Below are positions 1,509 through 36,544 of a stretch of 43,727 nucleotides of DNA, one piece after another. The stretch spans positions 1 through 43,727 of IMG/VR virus record IMGVR_UViG_3300021957_000079. One strand, written 5' to 3'. Source of the stretch: a virus. The notes under the pieces were generated by a model, which did no database searches, had not been told where the DNA came from, and worked only from the letters and a program-made list of their open reading frames with translations. A program made the position numbers and the translations under genes. How positions within the stretch are numbered: position 1 is the first letter of the stretch; the number at the start of each line of letters is the position of its first letter.

Positions 1509-1919
1509 TTAAACGATGCGGGCTTTAATAAAATGAGTTCCGTTTGCAGTTTTTTCGTGCATAATCTCTATAGACAAACCACCCTCAATCTTGTGGGAAA
1601 TTCCGTCATCATTAATATCTTCACCGTTTTCATCTTTACCTGTGCGTCCACCAAATTGTGTTAGTGGCATGGAATACTTTCCACCTTCTTCTGATAAGTC
1701 AGGCATATCAAATGAAAGAGAAAGTCTACCTAACTTTTCTTGCATCTTGTTAAGACAGTGTTCTGGAACAAGATGTTCCATTTGTCCCATTGCGCCTAAA
1801 AATCCATTGATACGTTCTACCATCTTTGGATTTGTTACATCATTAGAAAAGTCAGAACCATCCATTGGATAACCAGCATCAGTTGCCTTTTCGGCAATGT
1901 AGTTACTAAAGTTCTTCAT
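1509..1919 (-). CDS. Hypothetical protein with capsid-targeting-like N terminus
   Basis: A 136-aa protein. I prefer the second ATG (1919) over an in-frame ATG at 1928: AGAGG then sits 9 bases upstream, whereas it would abut the first ATG. With this start the protein begins MKNFSNYIAE followed by K. That closely matches the T4 internal-protein leader MKTYQEFIAE, which targets proteins into the prohead and is removed by protease gp21 after [I/L]xE. The rest is a compact domain with Gly/Asp-rich loops and a C-terminal beta region (GLSIEIMHEKTANGTHFIKARIV). I do not recognise that domain. The likely role, an internal head protein, is inferred from the leader and from neighbouring virion genes. 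Confidence 0.75.
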   Translation of the reverse strand: MKNFSNYIAEKATDAGYPMDGSDFSNDVTNPKMVERINGFLGAMGQMEHLVPEHCLNKMQEKLGRLSLSFDMPDLSEEGGKYSMPLTQFGGRTGKDENGEDINDDGISHKIEGGLSIEIMHEKTANGTHFIKARIV

Positions 1920-2046
1920 CTTTATCATCCTCTACTTTTTTCTTTTTCTTGTTTGGGTTAACCGAAAGAATTTCTTGAAGAACCTCTTCCTGAGGCTCTT
2001 CTTGAATTTTCATTGGTTTACCGTTTGCACCATATCTAATAGTCAT
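1906..2046 (-). CDS. Small hypothetical protein (46 aa)
   Basis: A 46-aa acidic/lysine-rich protein starting MTIRYGANGKPMKIQEE and ending in a KKKKKVEDDKDEEL tail. The frame extends further upstream, but a TAAGGAG ribosome binding site lies 5 bases before the ATG at 2046, so I place the start there. The 3' end overlaps the next gene by 14 bases. The short beta-like N terminus with a charged tail has no family I recognise. It is probably real because of the good ribosome binding site and because it fills the space exactly. Confidence 0.65.
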   Translation of the reverse strand: MTIRYGANGKPMKIQEEPQEEVLQEILSVNPNKKKKKVEDDKDEEL

Positions 2047-5785: not shown

Positions 5786-6053
5786 TTATTTTTTCCCAAA
5801 TTTTTACGACAAGTTTCCCTGTACCTTTTATTAATCTATGATACTCCATCATGGGTATCGTATATATCTTTTCTCTTTTCAATTCTACTGGAAGCATATT
5901 ATCTAGTTGCAATTTCCAACCACTTCCTTCGAGAACCATTACATCTCTTGTATGTTTGTCACGATGCCATATCAATTCTTCCTCTTGTACATCATCCTTA
6001 AACTCTCTGAGGAAATGTCCCTCTTCTTGAATATCAGAATATGGATTTACCAA
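5778..6053 (-). CDS. Small cupin-like conserved phage protein
   Basis: A 91-aa protein whose start appears to be TTG, overlapping the 3' end of the 652-aa gene. No in-frame ATG lies near the N terminus. The core LIWHRDKHTRDVMVLEG, then GWKLQLDNMLP, then IYTIPMMEYHRLIKG has the His-rich strand and turn pattern of a minimal cupin (small-molecule or metal-binding beta barrel). The two histidine-containing strands would be motifs 1 and 2. I recall similar small proteins in marine myophages without a known function. It is coupled on both sides to large virion-module proteins. Confidence 0.7.
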   Translation of the reverse strand: MVNPYSDIQEEGHFLREFKDDVQEEELIWHRDKHTRDVMVLEGSGWKLQLDNMLPVELKREKIYTIPMMEYHRLIKGTGKLVVKIWEKIND

Positions 6054-8005
6054 AAGAAATTACCGCCGCCACTTAAACCAAGTTGTTTTGCATAACGTGG
6101 AAGATTACAACTCCAGTATCCTGCCTTGGTTCTATCTTTTTGTTGATCACAGTTGTGACGAGCAGCAAAACTTTTTCTTGCATCCTTATCTGACAACTTA
6201 ACCTTTAGTCCACTCGTATCACCGAATGTAACCTTTTTAACATTACCTGTCTTTGGGTCTTTAACATACACATAGTATTTTTTAGGCCCACCGACCTTTG
6301 GTTTATTTAGTTCTACATCTTTTTCTTCAAACATCATAGGACAATCTAGTGGAACATGTTCTCCCTGATACATATCGTATTTACCGATATCACCTTCCAT
6401 CAGTTCCTTATCAAAACCTACTGGACTGTAAACTCCTACTTTATATGCATCTCTTTTCTCTGTAAAGAAATCATAGTACTTTTCTGAACCAACACGATAT
6501 TGATTTGATTCGATTAAACTTGATGTTTCGCATTCGTTACAACAATCTGGTGTTCCACACTTTGTATGTTCCTTAAACGAAAACGGTTTCTTCTCTTGGC
6601 CTGGCGTCATGTCTTGAAACAATTCCCTTCTGGCATTTGTGCCAACTTCACGAGCATCTTCTTTTTCTTCTTTTTGCCCTTTAGCCTGTTTCCACAAGTC
6701 TGCATCAGCAGTTGTTCTTGTCTTACCACCAGTAAGGAATGAGTTCACTCTTGCGAATGCCCACTGTTGTGGAGTAGTTCCTGGCCTATGTCCTGTTTTC
6801 CATGCAGCCATACCTCTATCGTATACTTTCTTTAGAATACCATATGATATACCAGACTTATCTGATTTGTCAACAAGCCCTTTAATCTTTTCGTCTAACT
6901 GAACTTCTTCTTTAGGAACACAGTTTGGCACCATTTTGCCATTCTTCTTTTTCATTCCCTGTTGTCTGTGAGTATCCCAACATGGGTCTTCCTCACCAAA
7001 CATATCTTTAAATTTCTTTGTGTACTTAGATGGTTTAGTATCTGCATTACCATCTCCTGGCGCAGGCCCATCTTTCTTCTTTGCAAAGTGTGCCGCACGT
7101 TTCTGTTTAGTGGACTTTGACATTGCATCACCATCAGCATCTTTTGCATAATACTTGGCTGGTTCAGTACCTTTTCTATCTTTAATATCTTTATCTTGTT
7201 TTACTTCGTACAACCACTTCTTGTGTGTAGTACCATCTTGTTCTGCAAACACAAGATAGTTAGTTCCTCTACGAATAACTTTACCAGAAACACCAGTGTA
7301 ATTATCTTCTACGATATCACCGATAGCATATAGTGTACCTTCGATATACATATCACGAATAACATCTTCTTCAGTCTGTTCTACTTGATGTGTGATAAAA
7401 GATTCACGAATACCCATATACTTACGAACATCTTTGAATAGAGACATTCCCTGTTTAAAGTTTTTAGGAAGTCCATTCTTAAACGAATCAAAATCATCAG
7501 ATGATGCCGCAGCTCTCATCTTAGATGCAGACATTCCAGTAACACCTTCTGCATCTGGGTCTCTTTCACCAGCAGATACAACTTCAATGTTATCAAAACC
7601 ATAGTAACCATGTCCTGATTCAACACCATTGTATTTGTTCAACAACGTATCAAACTCTTGTACTCTGTCAGAACCAACAACCATTATTACTGATTTATGG
7701 CCTTTGTTGTGTAGTGAGACTGCAATCTCAAATACGTTTCTTGCTTTATCTACAACAATTTTTCTGGCATGTTTTGGGAACATCTTCTTCATGTATGCAA
7801 CTTTCTTTACATACGGAAGAGGGTCTTTCTTAGGATTTTCAGAGTGAGATGCAAACACATAATATGGAGCGCCGACATTCTTTTTAGCCTGTCCAGCAAC
7901 TGCATCCATCAATTTTTCATGTCCAGTTGTTGGTGGATTGAATCTACCAAAAGTGAACACAGCAGTGTCACCTCTAGCTTCTCTTATTTCTGAAAACTTC
8001 TTCAT
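6047..8005 (-). CDS. Nucleotidyltransferase fusion, candidate gp21-processed polyprotein
   Basis: A 652-aa multidomain protein. Residues 1-9 (MKKFSEIRE) resemble a capsid-targeting leader with an IRE end. Residues 14-190 are a cytidylyltransferase-like Rossmann domain: FGRFNPPTTGHEKL (19-32) matches the HxGH region and TGMSASKMR (156-164) the ISSTxxR region, as in NMN or phosphopantetheine adenylyltransferases. After an IRE at 199-201 comes a small beta domain (about 205-268). Residues about 370-440 (after LDE at 370-372) match the DUF5824 type, SYGILKKVYDRGMAAWKTGH. A Cys cluster (C483, C488, C489, C492) follows. The C terminus (575-652, KKYYVYVKDPKTGNVKKVTFG onward) is a conserved marine-phage module. 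The substrate is unknown, as is whether the domains separate. Confidence 0.85.
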   Translation of the reverse strand: MKKFSEIREARGDTAVFTFGRFNPPTTGHEKLMDAVAGQAKKNVGAPYYVFASHSENPKKDPLPYVKKVAYMKKMFPKHARKIVVDKARNVFEIAVSLHNKGHKSVIMVVGSDRVQEFDTLLNKYNGVESGHGYYGFDNIEVVSAGERDPDAEGVTGMSASKMRAAASSDDFDSFKNGLPKNFKQGMSLFKDVRKYMGIRESFITHQVEQTEEDVIRDMYIEGTLYAIGDIVEDNYTGVSGKVIRRGTNYLVFAEQDGTTHKKWLYEVKQDKDIKDRKGTEPAKYYAKDADGDAMSKSTKQKRAAHFAKKKDGPAPGDGNADTKPSKYTKKFKDMFGEEDPCWDTHRQQGMKKKNGKMVPNCVPKEEVQLDEKIKGLVDKSDKSGISYGILKKVYDRGMAAWKTGHRPGTTPQQWAFARVNSFLTGGKTRTTADADLWKQAKGQKEEKEDAREVGTNARRELFQDMTPGQEKKPFSFKEHTKCGTPDCCNECETSSLIESNQYRVGSEKYYDFFTEKRDAYKVGVYSPVGFDKELMEGDIGKYDMYQGEHVPLDCPMMFEEKDVELNKPKVGGPKKYYVYVKDPKTGNVKKVTFGDTSGLKVKLSDKDARKSFAARHNCDQQKDRTKAGYWSCNLPRYAKQLGLSGGGNFFW

Positions 8006-9252
8006 TTATCCCATGCCTTTATTGCAGTAAAGTTATTAAAACTAAATTCCATTCTATCTACGAGTTTAACTGCATCGCCGGATACTCTGTCGATTGCAAC
8101 ATAACCTTCTGGATTAACCACTTTAAATCCATTAGCAGTCTTAATAAAGGTATCAGTTAATCCCTTAACACTATTTAGTTTACTTACAATCCCCATCTTA
8201 GCATCTACTAAATGGCCTTGGAACGCAATAACACTTTCTAAATTTTTCGTATGTTTCTTCATTTCACGAACATACTCTGTTTGGAGATTAGTATATTTCT
8301 CTTTACCCTTATCACTTTTTACTTTGTCAATCTGTTTCTGAATTGACATTTCTACCCACTTTTCATATCCCTTAGCATGTGCCTTTGGATTAGTAATTTT
8401 TTGTCCTTCACGAACCTTACTATTATTATAAGTCTTTAGTGACGCACCAGCAAGAGCTCCTGTCATACTATCTTGTAGTTTTAAGAACTTTGCTAACATA
8501 GGTGCATTAATTTTTTGGAATGTAGAACCAGCAGATGATAGTGACTTAGTAACCTTTGCAGTTTCATTAGAAGTCATTGTCGCTTTACCAGATACATCTT
8601 TATATGTTGCATCATCCATCCATACAGATGAAGGTTTAGATAACCCTTTGATGTTTGCACCAAATGATGCTTTCATATCTTGTAATGCATCACCAGTATA
8701 TGTTGTGTGCCATACAATACCAATTTTTGCAGTATTGATTTGTTTACCAATATCTGATGTAGGGTCTACTGCATATACAATTGTATTAGGTTGAAATGTG
8801 ATGAATGACTTTCCATCAATTTTCTCTGAAGACTTATCTTCTGATGTAAACATCAAGTCTCCTTGAAGAACACCTTTAATACCTAACTTAGAAAACTCTT
8901 CTAATGCAACTTTGAACTTCGTATTTAATGCACCAGATAATCCATCATCATCAATCTCTTTTGCGGTCTTGTACAACTTTGGAGTTGCGTTGAATACTGA
9001 CTTCTTTGCAACAAAGAACTTACCATCAGCAGGGTCAATACCAGCAAAGATTGCAGGCGCACCGTCCCACTTAACAGTCATGTTTACGGATGAACGTGCC
9101 TCACCAGCAAGCATATCTCTTAAAGAACGAACAAAGTTAATTGCAGCTCTACCGCCTGGCACACCAAAGTTTAATATCTCATCTTCGATATGTTCTAGGT
9201 GTAGATTTTTACCACCCTTGTCTTCTGTCAAGTATGAACTAAAGTTTATCAT
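8002..9252 (-). CDS. DUF6267-like protein with ligase-like KxDG motif
   Basis: A 416-aa protein that I match from memory to the DUF6267 family of marine T4-like phages. It begins MINFSSYLTE, a capsid-targeting-like leader. K61-W-D63-G64 in NMTVKWDGAPAIFAG looks like motif I of the covalent nucleotidyltransferase superfamily (DNA/RNA ligases), where the lysine is adenylated. LQGDLMF (129-135) fits motif III. PEGYVAI (381-387) and AVKLVDR (394-400) near the C terminus look like motifs IV and V. The III-IV spacing of about 250 residues is far longer than in classical ligases and is filled by a helical insert. An AAAGG ribosome binding site lies 7 bases before the ATG. Ligase activity is a hypothesis; a capsid-packaged role is inferred. 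Confidence 0.8.
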   Translation of the reverse strand: MINFSSYLTEDKGGKNLHLEHIEDEILNFGVPGGRAAINFVRSLRDMLAGEARSSVNMTVKWDGAPAIFAGIDPADGKFFVAKKSVFNATPKLYKTAKEIDDDGLSGALNTKFKVALEEFSKLGIKGVLQGDLMFTSEDKSSEKIDGKSFITFQPNTIVYAVDPTSDIGKQINTAKIGIVWHTTYTGDALQDMKASFGANIKGLSKPSSVWMDDATYKDVSGKATMTSNETAKVTKSLSSAGSTFQKINAPMLAKFLKLQDSMTGALAGASLKTYNNSKVREGQKITNPKAHAKGYEKWVEMSIQKQIDKVKSDKGKEKYTNLQTEYVREMKKHTKNLESVIAFQGHLVDAKMGIVSKLNSVKGLTDTFIKTANGFKVVNPEGYVAIDRVSGDAVKLVDRMEFSFNNFTAIKAWDK

Positions 9253-15490: not shown

Positions 15491-15866
15491 GTTCTTTTTT
15501 GACTCTTTCTAGTAATTCTAAAGTTCTCTTTCTATAACCAAATCCCAACATAGAGGCCTTTTCGCCTATATCATATGGTGGTTCTTTGCCTATAGAGTAG
15601 TATTGATCTGCTGTCAGATCAATTAACTTCTCATTTATATCTAAACACCACCAATGCCAAACGTCATTAGGGTCTAATGCTCGATATAACTTAATCTTCT
15701 TTGTAGTGAATACTTTCTGTAGACAGGCAGAAGAATGGTGACAATGGCCAAACATGGGATTGATTGAATTCCTCTTTCTCCACTTTAAAGGTATCAAATC
15801 TGGTGTAAGGTTTTTTAAGATTGTGTCTGATACTATTTTTAAGTTCTCTTCGTTATATTCCATCAT
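15480..15866 (-). CDS. YunG-like protein with Cys/His/Asp triad
   Basis: A 128-aa protein. It has the layout of the YunG family and related papain/transglutaminase-like small proteins: GHCHHSSACLQKVF (C42), then VWHWWCLDINEKLIDLTADQY (H71, D83). Order and spacing fit a Cys-His-Asp catalytic triad, with the DLTxDQ signature after the histidine strand. Such folds act as proteases, deamidases or amidases, and the substrate is unknown. It overlaps the start of nothing but abuts the DUF4338-like gene by 4 bases, so the two are co-translated. A host-takeover role is possible but not shown. Confidence 0.7.
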   Translation of the reverse strand: MMEYNEENLKIVSDTILKNLTPDLIPLKWRKRNSINPMFGHCHHSSACLQKVFTTKKIKLYRALDPNDVWHWWCLDINEKLIDLTADQYYSIGKEPPYDIGEKASMLGFGYRKRTLELLERVKKELDI

Positions 15867-16993
15867 CGTATTATCTGTATCTCATCTGGGTTGCGATTAA
15901 AAGTTTCAAGATTATGTCTAACACGGCCATCTGCCTTTAATGATTCATATCTCTTAGATGCCTTGTTCTTCCACCAATCAACACATCCAGAAAATGAATG
16001 TCTTTCAAAAGCGTCACCCTCAATAAGAGTATCGGTTTCAAAGTTCATATATTCTTTTACATTTGAATATCCAAAAGTACCAAGATACTGTCTCTTTTTT
16101 TCTGTTAGATTTTTAGCATCATTAAATGTCTGAACAAACTTTGTGTATTCTGTTGGTTCTATATTCTTTAGTGATGATTTGATAATAGAAATCATTTTGG
16201 TTTGCGTCTTTAGTTTCCTAGAACTAGCAGATTGATCAACCAGAGGTTCACCACCGTTACGTTCTTTAAACCAATCATTCAATCTATGGAAGTTGTCATC
16301 ATTAATAAGAGGAGCAAAGTCTGACATTGTATTACCCTTATATCGTAAGAATGGTTTCATACCATCATACTGCGAACTACTCTTAGTTGTACCGTATAAA
16401 GATGTAGTCTCAAACATACAAAAAGGGCCACCATACTTTTTATCTAGTGTATCTTTTGTAAGATGTGAACAACAGATAGATGCAAGTAGTTTACCACCCA
16501 AGTAATTAAATCCAAATGGTTGAGTTGGAACAATGATAAATCCCATAATAGTAGAATCATTGAACCGTTTCATTGTAGCTGGATCCATCGTATTCAATGG
16601 TTTACCTAAGAAATCATTACGAGGTTTTGAGTTGATTGTTGGTGAACCCAAACGAATAAACCCAGCAATCTGTCCTGTATTCTTTTCATACACTACCCAC
16701 TTGATGGACTTGCCTGGCACAGATACTTCTACTGCATGAGATGTTACAATTTCAAGATAGTTTACGAATATCTCATTACTAACTTCTTTACATTCAAACT
16801 CCATATCATTTGGATGCATATCAAAGTTACTGAACATATCATCTTCAGGCCCCATTCCAGGCAAAGACACTGGATAGTTACTCATACGTTCAAGTTTTAC
16901 TCTTCTAAGATAGTCATCAATTCTACCAAAGTTAGAAAAATAATCTACGAATACATTTGCAGCTTCAATAGCGTCTGTCCTGTTTAATATCAT
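15863..16993 (-). CDS. DUF4338-like protein
   Basis: A 376-aa protein. The centre (about 85-215) has a pattern I associate with DUF4338 (the DruA type seen in Druantia defence loci and some transposon neighbourhoods): IAGFIRLGSPTI, then DSTIMGFIIVPTQPFGFNYLGGKLLA, then a helix and FCMFETTSLYGTTKSSSQYDGMKPF. This is an alpha/beta, acyltransferase-like arrangement. The C-terminal 150 residues are helical and basic, with KNKASKRYESLKADGRVRHN. Similar proteins occur in T4-like marine phages. The 5' end overlaps the DNA polymerase gene by 4 bases. A sigma70-like promoter inside gp43 (17104-17132) could express it separately. The function is unknown. Confidence 0.65.
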   Translation of the reverse strand: MILNRTDAIEAANVFVDYFSNFGRIDDYLRRVKLERMSNYPVSLPGMGPEDDMFSNFDMHPNDMEFECKEVSNEIFVNYLEIVTSHAVEVSVPGKSIKWVVYEKNTGQIAGFIRLGSPTINSKPRNDFLGKPLNTMDPATMKRFNDSTIMGFIIVPTQPFGFNYLGGKLLASICCSHLTKDTLDKKYGGPFCMFETTSLYGTTKSSSQYDGMKPFLRYKGNTMSDFAPLINDDNFHRLNDWFKERNGGEPLVDQSASSRKLKTQTKMISIIKSSLKNIEPTEYTKFVQTFNDAKNLTEKKRQYLGTFGYSNVKEYMNFETDTLIEGDAFERHSFSGCVDWWKNKASKRYESLKADGRVRHNLETFNRNPDEIQIIR

Positions 16994-19524
16994 CCAAAAA
17001 AGTCCTCAAGTGTCATCTGTGTTCCGTAAGAGCGGTCAATGTTCCATTTGATTTGTTGCATAATAAAAACCAACGGTTCAATAAACGCCTTCTCGAATTG
17101 TTTATCATAGTCCAAATATTTGTGAATGTCAAGCTCTTTTGGTAATTTAGTCATAAAAGAAATAACATTCGATTGCATAGGGTTTGGTGTTCTCATATTT
17201 AAGAACTTAATCTTTTCACCCTCTTGAATAAGAGGATACTTATTTGTTAGTTTCTGTTTCTTAACAAAGTGATTATATAGAATAGCACCCTTACAATGCA
17301 TAGGTGTTCCAGATTGGAATATACTAGAACCACTACTCCACTTTGCAATACCATTCACAGAACGTGGAAAAGCAATATCTTCTGGGGATAGTTCCATAAA
17401 CTCATTACGAAACTCTTGAATAAATGTATTCACATCTTTCTCAGTACCAGACATAATAATCTTTAGACATTCCTTAATCTTCTCACGACAAGGAGCAGGC
17501 GTACTAGACTTGACAGCCTCAATACCCATAATCTTTAGTTGTGGTTCTTGATAACGAACACCTTCCATATCCCAAACATTTAGGATGTATCTTTTCTTTG
17601 CAGTCCAAATACCTTTGTCTGCAATCGCTTCACGCCCCATCTCCATCTTCTGGTCATATGCGTTTACATACGAAGCAAGCTCTTGATAACTTTTATTAAT
17701 AAAAGGTTCAATTTTCTCTTGAGCAATTCTATCAAGGAAATCCACGGCCCGGCCACGATACGCACTCTCCGATTCATTCTCTCTCTGTTTAAGCACAGTA
17801 TTAACCAACTTGTCAAAACTAATATATACCGAATCTGTATCCGATGCAATAACATAATCATCTCCATCTGTCTTTAATAATTTATTCAAATAATCATTGA
17901 GTGCCTGTTCAATCCAACGAATGGATAACTGGCCAGAAGTTGTAATACCTTCTGCAATTCTCAAATCATAATATCGAAACCACTCATTACCAATCGCACC
18001 ATAAGCAGAGTTCAAAGAAATCTTTCGTGCCATCTGGATGTTTTGAAAGCGAGACACATCATTCAGATACTTAGGGTCTTTAGTATCCTCATAAAGTTGT
18101 TTTGCAGTCAACATCTTTTTCTTGTAGATAGTACGATCATTGTACATCTCTTGCATCATCTCAGGCAAGAAACCTTGTTCCTTAGTTCTGAACAATGCAC
18201 CGTTTGGTGTACAAGTTACAGATGCAGATGGTAACATGGATAAGTCATGTTTCTTTTCTAACATCTCATCCACAGCCTTCTCTTTATTGAAAGGCATAGT
18301 TTTAGGTAATAGTGTTTCTGGGGAAATATTGTATTGCATAATCAAGTGTGGATACAAAGAGTTCAAGTCAAAAGACATTACCCATTTGTGTTCACCGACT
18401 TGTGGGTCTTTGACGTATGCACCAATATACTTTTCGTTTTTAGTTTTAGATGATCTCTTCTGTGGAATAACAATCTTCTTACTTAGAAGGTGGTTGTATA
18501 TCAACACATCCCAATACTTAACAGACGTAAAGGAATCAGACATGTTCACCTTAGCCTCATACGTCATAGTCAAAATCAAATCAATCAACTTCATCTTTGC
18601 GTCAAGTCTATCAACTAGTTCAACGTCCATGATGTTATAGTCGAGGAATGACTGATAGTCTTTAGTATACCAATCACGAAATGTTTCGTATGGGTTTTCA
18701 TCCTTGCGTTGTCCAAGTTCCACATTAGCAATATGGTCAAGACGATATGATTCTTGTCGAGTATATGTAAACTTACGATACAACAATAAGTAATCTAAGT
18801 CTTCGACACCCATGATATCATAGACTTGTTCCTTCTTACCATATGCACCAGTAATTGTTCGTGCATTCACAACACCCCAAGGAGATAGACGCTTCATTGC
18901 GTCTTCACCCATTACAGATTTAATACGGTTACAAAGATAGGGAATATCGAATCGTTCAGTATTCCAACCAGTAATAATATCAGGGTGATCACTTTCCCAC
19001 CAAGATACAAACTGTGCAAGCAATTCACGTTCACCATTACACTTGATGTATTGTACATCTTCTCTATCGTTCTTATAGTCGTGTAATCCCCAAACCTTGA
19101 TACGGCCTGTGTCGTGATTTTTGATTGTGATAGATAACATAGGTTCAAGTGCAACATCGGCATTAGGGAAACCGTTCTCACACTCAACCTCAATATCAAT
19201 AGTAACAATACGCATTTGCGAACTGTCATACTGAATTTGTTTTGGATATGTTTCTGAAATATATGTGTAAGGAAAGTTAGTCAACCCAAAACAAAGATGG
19301 GGTTGACTTTCATATCTTTCCTTGAACTCTTTAGCTTCCTTGATAGTAAGGAACTTCATTGGATTGACGTTCTTGTCATCCAAGGTTTTCCATCCTGTTT
19401 CTTTTTGAACAGGCACATAAAGAGTCGGTTCGTACTTTACTTTGAAGTTAGAGCGTACACCGTCTTTAACGGCACGAACCAATAGTTGATTACCCCATTG
19501 GGCAACATGAGTGTAGAATTTCAA
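16990..19524 (-). CDS. 43: DNA polymerase gp43 (family B)
   Basis: An 844-aa replicative polymerase with 3'-5' exonuclease. Exo I is TIDIEVE, Exo II TGWNTERFDIPYL, and Exo III is within YNIMDVELVDRL. Motif A is FDLNSLYPHL, motif B KISLNSAYGAIGNEW, and motif C ASDTDSVY. The C terminus ends GTQMTLEDFFG, the clamp-binding tail type. The start is probably TTG at 19524, giving (M)KFYTHV like T4 MKEFYI, with AGGG upstream. A TTG at 19542 would be almost leaderless, because the promoter -10 ends at 19551. T4 gp43 is 898 aa, so this form is slightly shorter. RegA, encoded nearby, represses gp43 translation in T4. Confidence 0.95.
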   Translation of the reverse strand: MKFYTHVAQWGNQLLVRAVKDGVRSNFKVKYEPTLYVPVQKETGWKTLDDKNVNPMKFLTIKEAKEFKERYESQPHLCFGLTNFPYTYISETYPKQIQYDSSQMRIVTIDIEVECENGFPNADVALEPMLSITIKNHDTGRIKVWGLHDYKNDREDVQYIKCNGERELLAQFVSWWESDHPDIITGWNTERFDIPYLCNRIKSVMGEDAMKRLSPWGVVNARTITGAYGKKEQVYDIMGVEDLDYLLLYRKFTYTRQESYRLDHIANVELGQRKDENPYETFRDWYTKDYQSFLDYNIMDVELVDRLDAKMKLIDLILTMTYEAKVNMSDSFTSVKYWDVLIYNHLLSKKIVIPQKRSSKTKNEKYIGAYVKDPQVGEHKWVMSFDLNSLYPHLIMQYNISPETLLPKTMPFNKEKAVDEMLEKKHDLSMLPSASVTCTPNGALFRTKEQGFLPEMMQEMYNDRTIYKKKMLTAKQLYEDTKDPKYLNDVSRFQNIQMARKISLNSAYGAIGNEWFRYYDLRIAEGITTSGQLSIRWIEQALNDYLNKLLKTDGDDYVIASDTDSVYISFDKLVNTVLKQRENESESAYRGRAVDFLDRIAQEKIEPFINKSYQELASYVNAYDQKMEMGREAIADKGIWTAKKRYILNVWDMEGVRYQEPQLKIMGIEAVKSSTPAPCREKIKECLKIIMSGTEKDVNTFIQEFRNEFMELSPEDIAFPRSVNGIAKWSSGSSIFQSGTPMHCKGAILYNHFVKKQKLTNKYPLIQEGEKIKFLNMRTPNPMQSNVISFMTKLPKELDIHKYLDYDKQFEKAFIEPLVFIMQQIKWNIDRSYGTQMTLEDFFG
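17104..17132 (-). promoter_or_regulatory. Internal sigma70-like promoter within gp43
   Basis: TTGACA (17127-17132), 17 bases, TATGAT (17104-17109) on the minus strand, inside the 3' part of gp43. It lies about 110 bases before the DUF4338-like gene. The match is as good as the intergenic promoters, including TTGACATT, but coding sequence could create it by chance. Confidence 0.5.
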
Positions 19525-19550
19525 AACATTTTCCCTTGTCAATTAGTTTC

Positions 19551-19579: not shown

Positions 19580-19794
19580 GAGAAAAGTGGCATTTGTTCG
19601 TCAGAAGAAAAGTGTTTTTCAATCATGTCAATAACATCTTGTGCATCTGCAATTTTAACCAATTCTGATTCTACTGCTTCTGCGATATCTGAATGTTCTC
19701 CGATACCAGCTGGATTCTTTAAGTATACTGCAATGTTTGCTTTGTGTAGAGCAATCTTGCCTTCGTTATGTAATTTTATAGCATTAAGCATCAT
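19576..19794 (-). CDS. Small conserved hypothetical protein
   Basis: A 72-aa acidic helical protein (HNEGKIALHKANIAVYLKNPAGIGEHSDIAEAVESELVKIADAQDVID). The tail EQMPLFS resembles a clamp-interacting peptide. It overlaps the end of the ATP-grasp gene by 11 bases and has AAAGG 8 bases before the first of two ATGs. I recall similar small ORFs near gp43 in marine T4-like phages; the function is unknown. Its stop codon lies inside the -35 of the gp43 promoter. Position between RegA/clamp-loader genes and the polymerase suggests a replication-linked role. Confidence 0.7.
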   Translation of the reverse strand: MMLNAIKLHNEGKIALHKANIAVYLKNPAGIGEHSDIAEAVESELVKIADAQDVIDMIEKHFSSDEQMPLFS

Positions 19795-21142
19795 TATCTT
19801 TACCTTTCATTGTTGTAATAATGAACTTCTTCTGAGGGTCAACCATGACATTCATTTTTGTCATTGCGAACCTATTTAGAAGAACATCAGTTCCCATTTC
19901 ACTTCTATCATCAAGGCCAAACATGAACTGATAACTGTGACCCATGAATTCCATGTCCAACTCAACAACAGGCCGTCTATCTACACCACCACCAGTTGTT
20001 GCTTCGTACATCTTAACAAGATTAGTAGTAATTGTTTTACCGTTCAATGTGAAAGTAATCTTCTTACCATTAATCTTTATATCTTCTGCATGTAATACAG
20101 AAAGTATTCCATTTCCAGTATCGAACTTGCCTTCCATCTCACCAAATGGTAATACGGATACTACTTCATGGTATCCACATTTGGTGGGGGCAGAGTATCT
20201 AGATTCTGTATTTTTGTAATGTTGAATAATTTCCTTTGCAATGTTTAGTCCAGAGTTAGCATCTTCAATACCGTCTGTGCCAGGCGAACTGTTTACTTCT
20301 AGAAAGTATGGTTGTCCTTTATATGGAATAAAGTCAACTGCAACACAATCACCATCAACAGCCTTCGCAGCAATTAAACATTGACGCACTTCTTCTTCTG
20401 ATAATTTGTATGGTTTTGGTTTTGCACCTTGAGATACATTTGATCTGAAATCACCTTCAATCACATCTCTACGCATAGTTCCAATAATCTTATTACCAAC
20501 AATTACCGCACGAACATCATAATCTGTTTTCATATACTCTTGTATAAGAATATCTGTATCTTTATCTTGTTTGTATAACAACTGCACAATTGAATCTAAG
20601 GCTCTCTTTGATTCAATAAACAGTACACCAACACCTTTAGAACCCCTAAGAGTTTTAAGGATGATTGGGAATTTTGTATCAAGTTCTTCTAATGCAGAAT
20701 CAATACTATCTTCATTAGGAATTAGAACTGTCTTTGGTTGGAGTAGTTTAAAATCTTTAAGTCGAACATAACTTCTGTACTTATCTGCACAGATACTAAT
20801 TGTAGTTCTGTTATTAATACAACTAATACCAATTCGTTCCAACTCAGAGATTAAATCTAACATACTATCTCTTGTTGGCGTACCACGAACAAATACAACC
20901 GTATCGTCTTTACTTACGTCAATACTATTATTGTTATCGGATAATGTGTGTTTTCCATTGTTGAAAGACAATGAAACTTCTTTGAAGTTGGCAAGGAAGG
21001 TTTCCATTCCCATCTTCTGAGCTTCTTTCTCAAACTTCTTTGCAGTGATTGACTTATCGCCAAACTCTACTGTAAGGATAACTACCTTATAGTTTTCCTC
21101 TGTTTTTTCTTCAACAATGAAATCCGAAAACGACTGTGCCAA
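19784..21142 (-). CDS. RimK-like ATP-grasp ligase fused to retropepsin-like protease
   Basis: A 452-aa fusion. The start is TTG directly after the regA stop, giving MAQSFSDFIVE, a capsid-targeting-like leader. Residues about 105-310 are an ATP-grasp domain of the RimK type (KFPIILKTLRGSKGVGV, ILIQEYMKTDYDVRAVIVG, then the metal site CVAVDFIPYKGQPYFLEVNSSPGTDG); such enzymes add amino acids to carboxyl groups. Residues about 323-445 match the retropepsin-like RimK-associated protease family: GKFDTGNGILSVLHAEDI with catalytic-type D341-T-G, then RRPVVELDMEFMGHSYQF and LDDRSEMGTDVLLNRF. In bacteria these two activities are usually separate genes. One chain would thus carry a peptide-bond-forming and a peptide-bond-cleaving domain. 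Substrates are unknown. Confidence 0.85.
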   Translation of the reverse strand: MAQSFSDFIVEEKTEENYKVVILTVEFGDKSITAKKFEKEAQKMGMETFLANFKEVSLSFNNGKHTLSDNNNSIDVSKDDTVVFVRGTPTRDSMLDLISELERIGISCINNRTTISICADKYRSYVRLKDFKLLQPKTVLIPNEDSIDSALEELDTKFPIILKTLRGSKGVGVLFIESKRALDSIVQLLYKQDKDTDILIQEYMKTDYDVRAVIVGNKIIGTMRRDVIEGDFRSNVSQGAKPKPYKLSEEEVRQCLIAAKAVDGDCVAVDFIPYKGQPYFLEVNSSPGTDGIEDANSGLNIAKEIIQHYKNTESRYSAPTKCGYHEVVSVLPFGEMEGKFDTGNGILSVLHAEDIKINGKKITFTLNGKTITTNLVKMYEATTGGGVDRRPVVELDMEFMGHSYQFMFGLDDRSEMGTDVLLNRFAMTKMNVMVDPQKKFIITTMKGKDNDA

Positions 21143-21547
21143 TTAAGATTCTCTCTTTTTACCTATGTTATACTTAGTCTCCAACTCCCACTCATTTTTC
21201 TCTTTAAAGGCAATTACCTTAATTTGAGATAGAGGAGCCTTAGGTTCAGCACTTCCAACAATTTCAATCAATCCCCAATCACCTAATAGTCCAGCAATAG
21301 AGTTACGTCTTGAAACATCGTTTTCATTTAGATTAGTATCTTTACCATCTAATGCAAATAACTCTTTAAAATGCACAATGTAATACTTACCCTGTTTGTG
21401 TAGGATGTGACACGACTGATATAACTTTCTCTCTTTACGAGAGGCAACACCAATCCTTGATAGTGTCTCACGAACCTTTAGGAAGTCATCTGGTTCTTTT
21501 AGTTTTACTTCCAGCATCGCTTCGGGATGCCAATCAATTTCATTCAT
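21143..21547 (-). CDS. regA: RegA translational repressor
   Basis: A 134-aa protein. RegA binds ribosome binding sites of early phage mRNAs and represses their translation. The match to T4 RegA is strong: DDFLKVRETLSRIGVASRKE, then LYQSCHILHKQGKYYIVHFKELFALDG, then RRNSIAGLLGDWGLIEIVG. It carries about 10 residues before the usual MxEVxLKxPxDFL start. I keep the upstream ATG because GGTGGAAGAA precedes it; an internal ATG at 21517 would match T4 length better. It overlaps gp62 by 4 bases, reproducing the T4 order 45-44-62-regA. Confidence 0.95.
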   Translation of the reverse strand: MNEIDWHPEAMLEVKLKEPDDFLKVRETLSRIGVASRKERKLYQSCHILHKQGKYYIVHFKELFALDGKDTNLNENDVSRRNSIAGLLGDWGLIEIVGSAEPKAPLSQIKVIAFKEKNEWELETKYNIGKKRES

Positions 21548-21936
21548 TTTCTTCCACCTTTGTTCAAACTATCTTTGATAGCCTTTATCTGGTCATGATT
21601 AAGTATAGACAATGCTTGCTTCGCTTTCTCATTACTATAACCATAATATTCTTTTACTATTTGTAGGTTTTTCAACTTATCAGCCTTTACCCAAGGCGCA
21701 TATCGTTTCTTAGACCTAATAGTATTTAGTAAAAAGTCATATTGTAGTTTTGAATCAAGGTGGTGACGCATATTCATCTCATTGACCAATGCAATAGTAT
21801 CATTGAATGGTGCGAGACATTTATTTATAATGAATGGAGAATACTTCTTTTCCCACATAGGATCATCTGATTCCATCAGATTTTCCTTTGTTTCATTCAT
21901 TGATTTTAGGTAGTGTTTTAGTTCATATCCACTCAT
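21544..21936 (-). CDS. 62: Clamp loader small subunit gp62
   Basis: A 130-aa helical protein between gp44 and RegA, as in T4. gp62 forms a 1:4 complex with gp44 and loads the sliding clamp gp45. The sequence (MWEKKYSPFIINKCLAPFND, then NEMNMRHHLDSKLQYDFLLN, then RYAPWVKADKLKNLQIVKEYYGYS) matches the conserved core of marine T4-like gp62. It is shorter than T4 gp62 (187 aa), as usual in marine relatives. The ATG overlaps the gp44 stop (ATGA), so the subunits are translationally coupled. Confidence 0.95.
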   Translation of the reverse strand: MSGYELKHYLKSMNETKENLMESDDPMWEKKYSPFIINKCLAPFNDTIALVNEMNMRHHLDSKLQYDFLLNTIRSKKRYAPWVKADKLKNLQIVKEYYGYSNEKAKQALSILNHDQIKAIKDSLNKGGRK

Positions 21937-34418: not shown

Positions 34419-34439
34419 AAAAACGATATTCCTACCGTT
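34418..34439 (-). terminator. Rho-independent terminator after gp22
   Basis: On the minus strand AACGGTA pairs with TATCGTT (7 bp, one G-U) around a GGAA tetraloop, followed by TTTT. The hairpin starts at the gp22 stop codon, and the T-tract runs into the gp23 late promoter. Confidence 0.75.
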
Positions 34440-35601
34440 ATTTAGCTCGCTTTACATTCTTACTAATAGCACTCATATAAGTTGCCATAGCACCAGTTGT
34501 ATCGAAAGATTCGGCACCATCAGTTTCCGAGTCTAGAGATTCAGCGATAGTTGTTGCCTTTGGAAAATAGTTTTCCTTCAGCGTATCGAGTTTTTCTTTA
34601 AAAGATTCTTCGTTAACGAACTCTACTTCTTCAGATAGAGATTTAAACTTCTCTACTTCTGTGTCTGCGAGATCAGAAGAAACTTCTGCGAAAACACTTT
34701 CACGAACTAGTTCATCAGTTTTCTTCTTCATTGAAGCAGCAACGTCAATTTGTTCGTTCAGTTTGGATTCCAGTTCGTCAATCTTTGCAGATTGTTGACC
34801 AAGAATGTCGTACTTCTCATCTGGTACATCAATGTAATGTTCTTCGAACAATGATTTTAGTCCAGAAATGAAGTCCTCAGCGATTTCACCTTTGAGACCA
34901 CGCTCAACAGCAATTTCGTTTTCTTTCATCCACTCTTCTACAACGTAGTTCATGTATGAATCAACTTTTTCAGTCAACTCTTCACGCACTGCGTTTACTT
35001 CTTCTGCAATCTCTAAAGTCTTTGACTCTTCGATTCTTGCAACTTCAGAACGAAGTTTAGATTTAACAGCAGCTTCAAAGATTGTTGCTGCTTTGTCTTT
35101 AAATTCTTCAGAAATTTCTTCACCTTCAACAAGTGCTGAAACGTCTTCAGATACATCTACGGATGCAAGGCGGTCATCAAGAGTAGATTCGTCAACTGAC
35201 TCTTCTTTTTCTTCTTCTTCCTTATTCATCATTTTGTCGTAAGATGCTTTGAGTTCTGCTGATTTCATGGATTTCATTTCGTCATACATGGCATTCAACA
35301 TAGTCTCTTTAGTCATTTTTGCTTCTTCTAATGCTTCTGCATCATCATCAGCGAGATCTGTTTCTTCTTTGGTTGCACCGACAGCAGGTTCTGCAGCTTT
35401 CTTAACTTTAGCAGCAGTCTTCTTACCAGCACTGTCTTTTGATTCTGGATCATCGACAGCTTTACCCAAATCTTCAACGTCACCCTCTTGTTTATCCATT
35501 GAGTCGCCTTTACCAGCGCCATCAGTTGGTTGCTTCGCTTCTTCAAGCTCTGCACTGACTTCCGCCTCTAGTTCCTCAATTGTCTTGTCTAGTTCCGACA
35601 T
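34438..35601 (-). CDS. 22: Prohead core scaffold gp22
   Basis: A 387-aa acidic, helical scaffold protein that forms the prohead core and is degraded by gp21. Position between gp21 and gp23 and the C-terminal core (SSDLADTEVEKFKSLSEEVEF, then ESFKEKLDTLKENYF) identify it. It is longer than T4 gp22 (269 aa) because of a Lys/Glu/Asp-rich N-terminal third, as in marine relatives. Several LxE and IxE sites occur along it, as expected for a gp21 substrate. GGAGAAATCCCC precedes the ATG. Confidence 0.93.
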   Translation of the reverse strand: MSELDKTIEELEAEVSAELEEAKQPTDGAGKGDSMDKQEGDVEDLGKAVDDPESKDSAGKKTAAKVKKAAEPAVGATKEETDLADDDAEALEEAKMTKETMLNAMYDEMKSMKSAELKASYDKMMNKEEEEKEESVDESTLDDRLASVDVSEDVSALVEGEEISEEFKDKAATIFEAAVKSKLRSEVARIEESKTLEIAEEVNAVREELTEKVDSYMNYVVEEWMKENEIAVERGLKGEIAEDFISGLKSLFEEHYIDVPDEKYDILGQQSAKIDELESKLNEQIDVAASMKKKTDELVRESVFAEVSSDLADTEVEKFKSLSEEVEFVNEESFKEKLDTLKENYFPKATTIAESLDSETDGAESFDTTGAMATYMSAISKNVKRAK

Positions 35602-35646: not shown

Positions 35647-36294
35647 TTAAAGTTTCGACATAAATTTTGCGAAGGCTAATGCGGAAACATTTGACTGTCT
35701 CTTTCTTACACCTTCATTTATATCATTCTTGATTCCATTGATATCCACTTCTTTGAGAATACCGTTGTTCCAAATCCATTCTTTACCTTCCATAATACCT
35801 TCAACGAAGGCTTGAGGTGCAGAAGGGTCTGCAACAATATCTGCCGCAGTGGCAAGATAAAAATCGTCTTTCACATAATTAGCACCACTTTTATTTTCGA
35901 TAGAACCCATACCTCTTGAAGAGACACCTAGTTTTCCACCGTCTTTAATTAGTGCTTTCGCAATTTCCCCCATTGGAGTAGAGAGCAGTTTCGCCTCACC
36001 AATAAAGTTCTTTCCATCCGCTTCCAGTTTTGTGATCATGTGCGATACTCTGTCAAGATTGACAGTTGGGCCTTCTGGGTGTCCCAGTTCCCCAAACGCA
36101 CGACCTTCAGCAACAAATTCTTTGTTGTAACGAGTAACTTCTTTTTGAAGTACACCCATTGGGTAGACACGACCATTACGGTTCTTCATGTCTGCCTGCA
36201 TGAAAATTCCACGAATCTTCATATCCTTTTTACCATCGTCTTTTTCTTCAACGATGTATTCTACTTCTTGTATTTGTTCAGCGATAAGTTTCAT
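35647..36294 (-). CDS. 21: Prohead protease gp21
   Basis: A 215-aa serine protease that matures the prohead by cutting gp23 and core proteins at [I/L]xE sites. Conserved segments are the NRNGRVYPMGVLQKEV strand, GRAFGELGHPEGPTVNLDRVSH (catalytic histidine region) and GKLGVSSRGMGS (catalytic serine region). The start MKLIAEQIQEVEYIVEE at 36294 is chosen over an upstream start because it matches marine relatives and follows the previous gene's stop. Length is near T4 gp21 (212 aa). It is the predicted processing enzyme for the capsid-targeting-like leaders described elsewhere in this window. Confidence 0.95.
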   Translation of the reverse strand: MKLIAEQIQEVEYIVEEKDDGKKDMKIRGIFMQADMKNRNGRVYPMGVLQKEVTRYNKEFVAEGRAFGELGHPEGPTVNLDRVSHMITKLEADGKNFIGEAKLLSTPMGEIAKALIKDGGKLGVSSRGMGSIENKSGANYVKDDFYLATAADIVADPSAPQAFVEGIMEGKEWIWNNGILKEVDINGIKNDINEGVRKRQSNVSALAFAKFMSKL

Positions 36295-36295
36295 A

Positions 36296-36544
36296 TTAAT
36301 ACCCCGAATTTCCAATTGGAGTTGCTTTAATAGTACTTGCACCACGCAAACCTTGTCCAGCTTCCAAATGTATTACAATTCCACCACCAGCAGGAACACG
36401 AACTGTCCCAATATCTGCATCGTCATCAGCATTACGGACTGTTACCAATCCAGCTGAACCAGTATTAAATACCCATGCCGCACCAGTAGATGTCAAACCT
36501 GTAGAACCTGTTGCGAGGGCGACTTCTGTTCCTAAAACTTTCAT
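36296..36544 (-). CDS. Small beta-rich virion protein
   Basis: An 82-aa protein: VFNTGSAGLVTVRNADDDADIGTVRVPAGGGIVIHLEAGQGLRG then a short C-terminal strand. The pattern of alternating strands with a conserved VPAGGxIxIxLxxGQ loop is common in small capsid-associated proteins of marine T4-like phages. GGAAGAAGTGAT precedes the ATG. It sits between the core proteins and the protease in the head-assembly unit, an insertion relative to T4 order. A capsid decoration or head-tail role is likely; the exact function is unknown. Confidence 0.75.
   Translation of the reverse strand: MKVLGTEVALATGSTGLTSTGAAWVFNTGSAGLVTVRNADDDADIGTVRVPAGGGIVIHLEAGQGLRGASTIKATPIGNSGY

What the first reader, a model, noticed from the sequence alone, without database searches (positions are those of the whole stretch)
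19784..21142. ATP-grasp ligase and retropepsin-like protease in one chain
The protein couples a RimK-like domain, which adds amino acids to proteins or peptides, to a DTG aspartic-protease-like domain of the RimK-associated type. In bacteria these are normally separate genes. Here they are fused, start with TTG right behind regA, carry a capsid-targeting-like leader, and sit amid replication genes. A write-and-erase modifier of a host protein, such as a ribosomal protein tail, is an attractive hypothesis.
Basis: partly seen in the sequence, partly recalled or inferred. Interest (0 to 1): 0.7.

Follow-up and report, generated by a model that had tools for sequence, protein, structure and literature searches.

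The report
Phage-packaged glutamate ligase–protease fusion
A marine T4-like phage carries one protein that joins an amino-acid-adding (RimK-type) enzyme to a trimming (RimB-type, HIV-protease-like) enzyme behind a T4-style tag for loading into the phage head, so it may be injected with the DNA to modify proteins in the infected cell at once; this has not been tested in the laboratory.

Summary
One 452-aa ORF (minus strand, TTG start directly after the regA stop codon) encodes a RimK-type ATP-grasp ligase followed by a RimB/Rlo-type retropepsin. Both active sites are intact, and both domains are under purifying selection. In about 50 distinct marine relatives the gene lies between regA and gene 43, and all but one relative (Melnitz) keep both domains. 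[quoted passage not shown] The phage protein has the opposite order, and its RimK domain branches apart from theirs. The most telling feature is the N-terminus. It matches the mapped capsid-targeting sequence of T4 internal proteins IPII/IPIII at all four mapped positions in 54 of 54 relatives, and a distant full-length homologue (phage YerA41) is annotated as a virion protein. Best reading: a head-packaged, injected writer/trimmer of amino-acid (probably glutamate) tails. Ribosomal protein S6 as target is weakly supported. Enzyme activity, target and packaging in this lineage are untested. Novelty: new variant of a known kind.

The parts
19784..21142 (-). rimKB: fused RimK-type ATP-grasp ligase and RimB-type retropepsin, 452 aa, TTG start
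   Evidence: dN/dS 0.06-0.16 in both domains against relatives
21110..21142 (-). N-terminal leader MAQSFSDFIVE (residues 1-11), T4 capsid-targeting-sequence-like; predicted prohead-protease cut after E11 (I-V-E|E)
   Evidence: Conserved in 54/54 relatives; same pattern as T4 IPII/IPIII MKTYQEFIAEA; N-terminal enrichment over internal matches
20195..21091 (-). RimK-type pre-ATP-grasp and ATP-grasp domain, residues 18-316
   Evidence: PF08443 E 1.8e-38; TIGR00768 168.6 bits over cut-off 143.4; model matches RimK 7qyr Z 30.6
20291..20335 (-). ATP-grasp metal/glutamate ligands D270, E282, N284
   Evidence: Invariant in alignments; align with RimK D248/E260/N262
19808..20191 (-). RimB/Rlo-type retropepsin domain, residues 318-445
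   Evidence: PF05618; separate model matches 2pma Z 14.1, 9g58 Z 13.7, then viral retropepsins Z 8-10
20114..20122 (-). Catalytic DTG motif (D341-G343)
   Evidence: Invariant in all full-length relatives including YerA41
21152..21160 (-). AAAAAGAGA, Shine-Dalgarno-like stretch upstream of the TTG
   Evidence: Read from the sequence
21143..21547 (-). regA-like translational repressor, directly upstream (context)
   Evidence: Present upstream in 73/73 loci; annotated in Mosig
16990..19542 (-). DNA polymerase gp43 downstream (context)
   Evidence: Present downstream in 51/51 loci
35647..36345 (-). Head maturation (prohead) protease, the enzyme expected to remove the leader
   Evidence: phrog_207 E 1.4e-80
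34438..35601 (-). Head scaffolding protein, the expected docking partner of the leader
   Evidence: phrog_237 E 1e-80

Best explanation
The gene encodes a cargo enzyme of the virion. Its first 11 residues act as a T4-type capsid-targeting sequence: they dock the protein into the prohead core, and the prohead protease removes them after I-V-E (inferred from the match to the mapped T4 sequence). The mature protein is packaged and injected with the DNA (inferred; supported by the YerA41 homologue). In the cell the ATP-grasp domain uses ATP to add amino acids, most likely L-glutamate, to the C-terminus of a protein or peptide (inferred from family and conserved glutamate-site residues). The fused retropepsin trims the added tail and/or tunes the ligase, as RimB does for RimK (inferred from family). 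The target is unknown; ribosomal protein S6 is one candidate but not a favoured one.
For: Fold and family of both domains. Catalytic residues invariant: D270/E282/N284 and D341-T342-G343. RimK glutamate-contact residues R64, R189 and N262 (listed in PMC10092738) are conserved as R86, R211 and N284. dN/dS is 0.06-0.16 for both domains. The leader has F at the position of T4 CTS residue 4, F/Y at 7, I/L at 8 and E at 10 in 54/54 relatives. Those four positions were mapped by mutation in T4 as the targeting (4, 7) and processing (8, 10) residues (PMC9026906). The motif at an N-terminus occurs 2 times in 39 T4 ORFs (exactly IPII and IPIII; 0.07 expected), 1 in 219 Mosig ORFs (the rimKB gene; 0.27 expected) and 3 in 84 window ORFs (0.15 expected). 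The YerA41 full-length homologue is annotated 'structural protein', and the YerA41 paper reports LC-MS/MS of purified particles (63 proteins) with likely injection of enzymes. RimB both trims polyglutamate and stimulates RimK (PMC11957791). The window encodes its own prohead protease and scaffold.
Against: No activity has been shown for any member. YerA41 is distant, lacks the T4-type leader, and its particle preparation also held polymerases and helicases, so contamination is possible. The gene sits with replication genes, and no late promoter specific to it was established. RimK residue R8, and S68 in part, which hold the distal part of the glutamate chain, are not conserved, so the acceptor or even the amino acid may differ. 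The purified bacterial RimBK hybrid showed protease but no S6 ligase activity (PMC11957791).
Confidence: 0.6

Rival explanations
1. It is an ordinary intracellular host-takeover enzyme, made early with the replication genes, which glutamylates and trims ribosomal protein S6 (or another ribosomal protein) of the host; the leader is not a packaging signal.
For: Location between regA and gene 43. RimK/RimB modify S6 in Pseudomonas (PMC11957791). The stand-alone phage RimKs of S-RIM12 and S-RIM32 lack the leader.
Against: The four leader positions are conserved in 54/54 relatives and match a mapped T4 signal found on only two ORFs in the T4 stretch tested. S6-specific RimK equivalog not met. Only 2 of 12 recovered S6 tails in the probable SAR11 family end in Glu, and RimK is nearly absent there.
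Confidence: 0.2
2. It works during head assembly on phage proteins: packaged by the leader, it adds or trims acidic tails on internal or scaffold proteins, or makes poly-alpha-glutamate inside the head, and is not an injected effector.
For: Leader as above. RimK with RimB makes free poly-alpha-glutamate (PMC11957791). RimB cleaves internal polyglutamate in test proteins.
Against: Packaged T4 proteins with this leader are delivered into the host (PMC9026906). ATP supply inside a closed head is doubtful. Phages with related heads lack the gene: HTVC008M has an MCP 72% identical to the window's but no rimKB match.
Confidence: 0.12
3. The ATP-grasp domain joins a different amino acid or makes a small peptide (as LysX/ArgX, MptN or CofF do) and the protease merely regulates it.
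For: MptN and LysX profiles score close to the RimK family (139.8 and 110.3 against 168.6 bits). ArgX/LysX structures are only about 1.5 Z below RimK. R8 and partly S68 are lost.
Against: Best family, best structures and the FRSN motif are of RimK type. The partner domain is RimB-like, a specific partner of RimK.
Confidence: 0.15

Closest known systems
RimBK hybrid enzyme (Desulfotalea psychrophila DP2392; Flavobacteriales, Rhodobacterales), PMC11957791
   Same: Same two domain families in one chain; protease active on polyglutamylated RpsF
   Different: RimB is N-terminal there and C-terminal here; the RimK domains fall on different branches; no capsid-targeting leader; bacterial, not phage
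RimK + RimB of Pseudomonas (separate genes of the RimABK system)
   Same: Domain folds, ATP-grasp ligands and DTG motif
   Different: Separate genes there, fused here; S6-specific RimK profile not met; R8 not conserved
Secreted retropepsins RloA/RloA2 (9g58, 9g59) and Lpg0085 DUF785 (2pma)
   Same: Closest solved folds of the C-terminal domain (Z 13-14)
   Different: Stand-alone proteins there; the Rlo equivalog cut-off is not reached (34.6 of 210 bits)
T4 internal proteins IPII/IPIII and Alt
   Same: Same N-terminal targeting motif as IPII/IPIII; same predicted route of head packaging and injection; Alt is also an injected protein-modifying enzyme
   Different: The cargo is unrelated; Alt is an ADP-ribosyltransferase
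Yersinia phage YerA41 gene 066 (QSM00767.1)
   Same: Full-length RimK-RimB fusion in the same order, 34% identical over residues 38-437, annotated as structural protein
   Different: Different N-terminus, different locus (next to ribonucleotide reductase), unrelated phage group
Stand-alone phage RimK (Melnitz; cyanophages S-RIM12, S-RIM32; phrog_2599)
   Same: RimK-type ATP-grasp; Melnitz has the same locus and leader
   Different: No protease domain; the cyanophage copies lie elsewhere, lack the leader and branch apart

Membership tests
RimK family alpha-L-glutamate ligase (PF08443, TIGR00768) | Profile score over the curated cut-off | tested here: met
   132.5 bits (cut-off 21) and 168.6 bits (cut-off 143.4)
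RimK family alpha-L-glutamate ligase (PF08443, TIGR00768) | Intact ATP-grasp ligands and glutamate-site residues | tested here: met
   D270/E282/N284, R86 and R211 conserved; R8 not conserved and S68 only partly
S6-specific RimK (NF007764) | Equivalog profile cut-off | tested here: not met
   97.3 bits against a cut-off of 331
S6-specific RimK (NF007764) | Adds glutamate to ribosomal protein S6 | not testable with these tools
   Needs an enzyme assay
RimB/Rlo retropepsins (PF05618, DUF785) | Profile cut-off | tested here: met
   28.1 bits against 27, marginal
RimB/Rlo retropepsins (PF05618, DUF785) | Retropepsin fold with DTG catalytic motif | tested here: met
   2pma Z 14.1, 9g58 Z 13.7; DTG invariant
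RimB/Rlo retropepsins (PF05618, DUF785) | Cleaves polyglutamate | not testable with these tools
   Needs an enzyme assay
Bacterial RimBK hybrid | RimB domain N-terminal to RimK | tested here: not met
   Order is RimK then RimB; six bacterial fusions read in a 299-genome sample are all RimB-RimK
T4-type CTS-bearing internal protein | CTS positions 4, 7, 8 and 10 at the N-terminus with an L/I-X-E cleavage site | tested here: met
   54/54 relatives; enrichment test
T4-type CTS-bearing internal protein | Found in the virion and processed by the prohead protease | tested here: inconclusive
   Only the distant YerA41 homologue carries a virion annotation; no proteomics for this lineage was found

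The most novel reading that the evidence does not exclude
Abundant marine T4-like phages inject a ready-made protein-tailing writer and trimmer (RimK-RimB in one chain) with their DNA, a second kind of injected protein-modifying enzyme besides the Alt-type ADP-ribosyltransferases, acting on hosts that largely lack RimK.
Probability: 0.5. Interest if true: 0.82.

Novelty: new variant of a known kind. Interest (0 to 1): 0.63.

Why it matters
If right, it adds reversible amino-acid tailing to the short list of modifications that a phage delivers from its virion before it makes any protein, in phages of some of the most abundant ocean bacteria. It gives a directly testable leader-plus-cargo hypothesis, and a natural single-chain ligase and retropepsin for studying how RimB steers RimK. 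It also suggests that the RimK/RimB pairing was fused at least twice, in opposite orders.

Tried and rejected
(1) A T4-type late promoter upstream as evidence for packaging: TATAAATA occurs at 21822 inside gene 62, but it overlaps conserved codons and is absent from most close relatives, so it is inconclusive. (2) A bacterial source of the fusion: the genome scan's one strong hit, in an 'alphaproteobacterial MAG', is a Mosig-like phage contig by its gene content. (3) Erwinia phage Asesino virion protein as a RimB relative: E 0.1 and no DTG in the stretch read, rejected. (4) Phage-encoded ribosomal protein S21 as target: present in Mosig, but its C-terminus ends in ...QRGY, with no acidic tail, and no copy was recognised in the window; not pursued. 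(5) A seventh long bacterial frame (L121) showed no DTG or RimK motif in the stretch read and was left unresolved. (6) A fold search with the whole model lists only the ATP-grasp part, so the C-terminal domain was folded and searched alone.

Full report
OBSERVATION. The window (43.7 kb, an IMG/VR virus record) is part of a marine T4-like phage. Its major capsid protein is 88.5% identical to that of Methylophilales phage Melnitz and 75% to that of Pelagibacter phage Mosig. The TTG follows the regA stop codon TAA with no gap, preceded by a Shine-Dalgarno-like AAAAAGAGA.

DOMAINS. Pfam gives RimK at residues 119-307 (E 1.8e-38) and Zn_protease, the RimB/DUF785 family, at 369-443 (E 2.2e-6, just over the cut-off). 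NCBIfam gives the RimK family over its cut-off, but no single-function equivalog; the S6-specific RimK model scores 97 against a cut-off of 331. An AlphaFold2 model built on 29 window and IMG/VR rows (mean pLDDT 79) matches P. aeruginosa RimK (Z 30.6, 287 residues) and the RimK-RpsF complex (Z 30.1), with LysX/ArgX about 1.5 lower. The C-terminal domain modelled alone (pLDDT 80) matches 2pma (DUF785, Z 14.1) and RloA/RloA2 (Z 13.7 and 13.2), then Ddi1 and viral retropepsins at Z 8-10. The protease assignment therefore does not rest on the marginal Pfam score.

ACTIVE SITES. Across 11 divergent full-length proteins, down to 33% identity and including YerA41, the invariant residues include D270, E282 and N284 of the ATP-grasp site and D341-T342-G343 of the retropepsin (a larger set). 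On a RimK alignment, residues reported to bind the glutamate chain in P. aeruginosa RimK (S7, R8, S14, R64, S68, R189, N262; PMC10092738) fare as follows. R64, R189 and N262 are kept; S7 and S14 are mostly Ser or Thr; R8 is lost; S68 varies. The catalytic end of the glutamate site is kept and the distal end has changed. My inference is that ligase chemistry is kept while the acceptor may differ. Nei-Gojobori dN/dS against four relatives is 0.08-0.16 for the ligase and 0.06-0.12 for the protease.

DISTRIBUTION AND CONTEXT. A scan of IMG/VR returned the maximum of 80 loci. Where there is enough sequence, regA lies directly upstream in 73/73 and gene 43 downstream in 51/51. Mosig has the fusion at this place, annotated as glutathione synthetase. 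Melnitz has the same locus and leader but only the ligase. HTVC008M gave no match. Yersinia phages YerA41 and GN1 have the full fusion elsewhere, annotated 'structural protein'.

LEADER. All 54 distinct leader-bearing proteins start with F-x-x-[FY]-[IL]-x-E followed by E, A or D, e.g. MAQSFSDFIVEE, MQVPKFREFISEA, MEKFSEFITEA. T4 IPII and IPIII, read here from the T4 record, start MKTYQEFIAEA. In T4, ten residues suffice for head targeting; mutation showed that targeting depends mainly on residues 4 and 7 and processing on 8 and 10, and gp21 cuts after L/I-X-E (PMC9026906). The phage leader keeps all four positions. With the same pattern, N-terminal matches were counted against the rate inside proteins. 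In an 18-kb stretch of T4 the only N-terminal matches are IPII and IPIII (0.07 expected). In all of Mosig the only one is rimKB (0.27 expected). In the window there are three (0.15 expected): rimKB and two other genes, 1509-1928 and 8002-9252. The window also encodes the prohead protease and scaffold. That the protein is packaged and injected remains an inference for this lineage; the YerA41 virion annotation is independent but distant support.

COMPARISON WITH KNOWN SYSTEMS. RimB of Pseudomonas fluorescens is a retropepsin-like enzyme that removes glutamates from polyglutamylated RpsF and stimulates RimK. A hybrid RimBK was found in Desulfotalea, with RimB N-terminal, and 12% of rim-bearing accessions have it. 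The purified hybrid had protease activity but no RpsF glutamylation (PMC11957791). In an even sample of 299 genomes of the phylum, 97 have PF05618. Of seven long frames fetched, six are RimB-RimK fusions and none RimK-RimB; the seventh is unresolved, and the match list was truncated. In a RimK-domain tree the phage fusions, with Melnitz, stand apart from the bacterial RimK and RimBK rows; the placing of YerA41 (long branch) is uncertain (quick method). So the phage protein is not a RimBK by the defining domain order, although it may work like one.

TARGET. Two genomes were recognised as probable SAR11 by a 16S probe sequence that I recalled, so that label is inference. In the GTDB family of one of them, one of 60 genomes has a strong RimK match (E 5e-52); the others have only weaker ATP-grasp matches whose sizes fit glutathione synthetase, D-Ala ligase and carbamoyl-phosphate synthase. 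Of 12 S6 proteins recovered there, two end in glutamate. The phage is thus not copying a common host gene, and S6 is not an obvious acceptor.

STEPS SHOWN AND INFERRED. Shown by computation: the fusion, the folds, conserved catalytic residues, selection, synteny, and leader conservation and enrichment. Taken from papers: the role of the T4 leader, and RimB/RimK chemistry. Inferred: packaging, injection, glutamate as the added residue, trimming by the fused protease, and any target.

NOVELTY. A search of the held literature found no paper describing a phage RimK-RimB fusion or a packaged RimK; most subscription-journal papers and all preprints are outside that library. I class it as a new variant of a known kind.

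Noticed in passing
window 15863-16993 (-): Protein matching Druantia DruA (PF14236, E 1.4e-7); Mosig carries a DUF4338 gene. A defence-system-type gene in a phage.
   Followed up: no
window 8002-9252 (-) and 1509-1928 (-): Two genes outside the replication cluster (DUF6267, and one without family) carry the same capsid-targeting-like leader as rimKB and may be further packaged cargo. The DUF6267 family is widespread in cyanophages (402 phage records match); the other matches only Melnitz and HTVC008M.
   Followed up: partly
window 6047-8005 (-): Large protein beginning MKKFSEIREA with a cytidylyltransferase-like domain (PF01467, phrog_3041); the leader is similar but does not fit the strict pattern.
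   Followed up: no
window 10665, 24407, 32408, 33023, 34411, 35635, 41148, 21822: All eight TATAAATA boxes (T4 late-promoter type) are on the minus strand, most just upstream of structural genes; one lies inside gene 62.
   Followed up: partly
L085: Contig filed in the genome collection under an alphaproteobacterial MAG (TMED93) has the gene order of a Mosig-like phage (clamp, clamp loader, regA, rimKB, gene 43); contamination or an infecting phage.
   Followed up: yes
L084 (Melnitz 82-1131): Melnitz keeps leader and locus but has no protease domain: a natural ligase-only version for comparison.
   Followed up: partly
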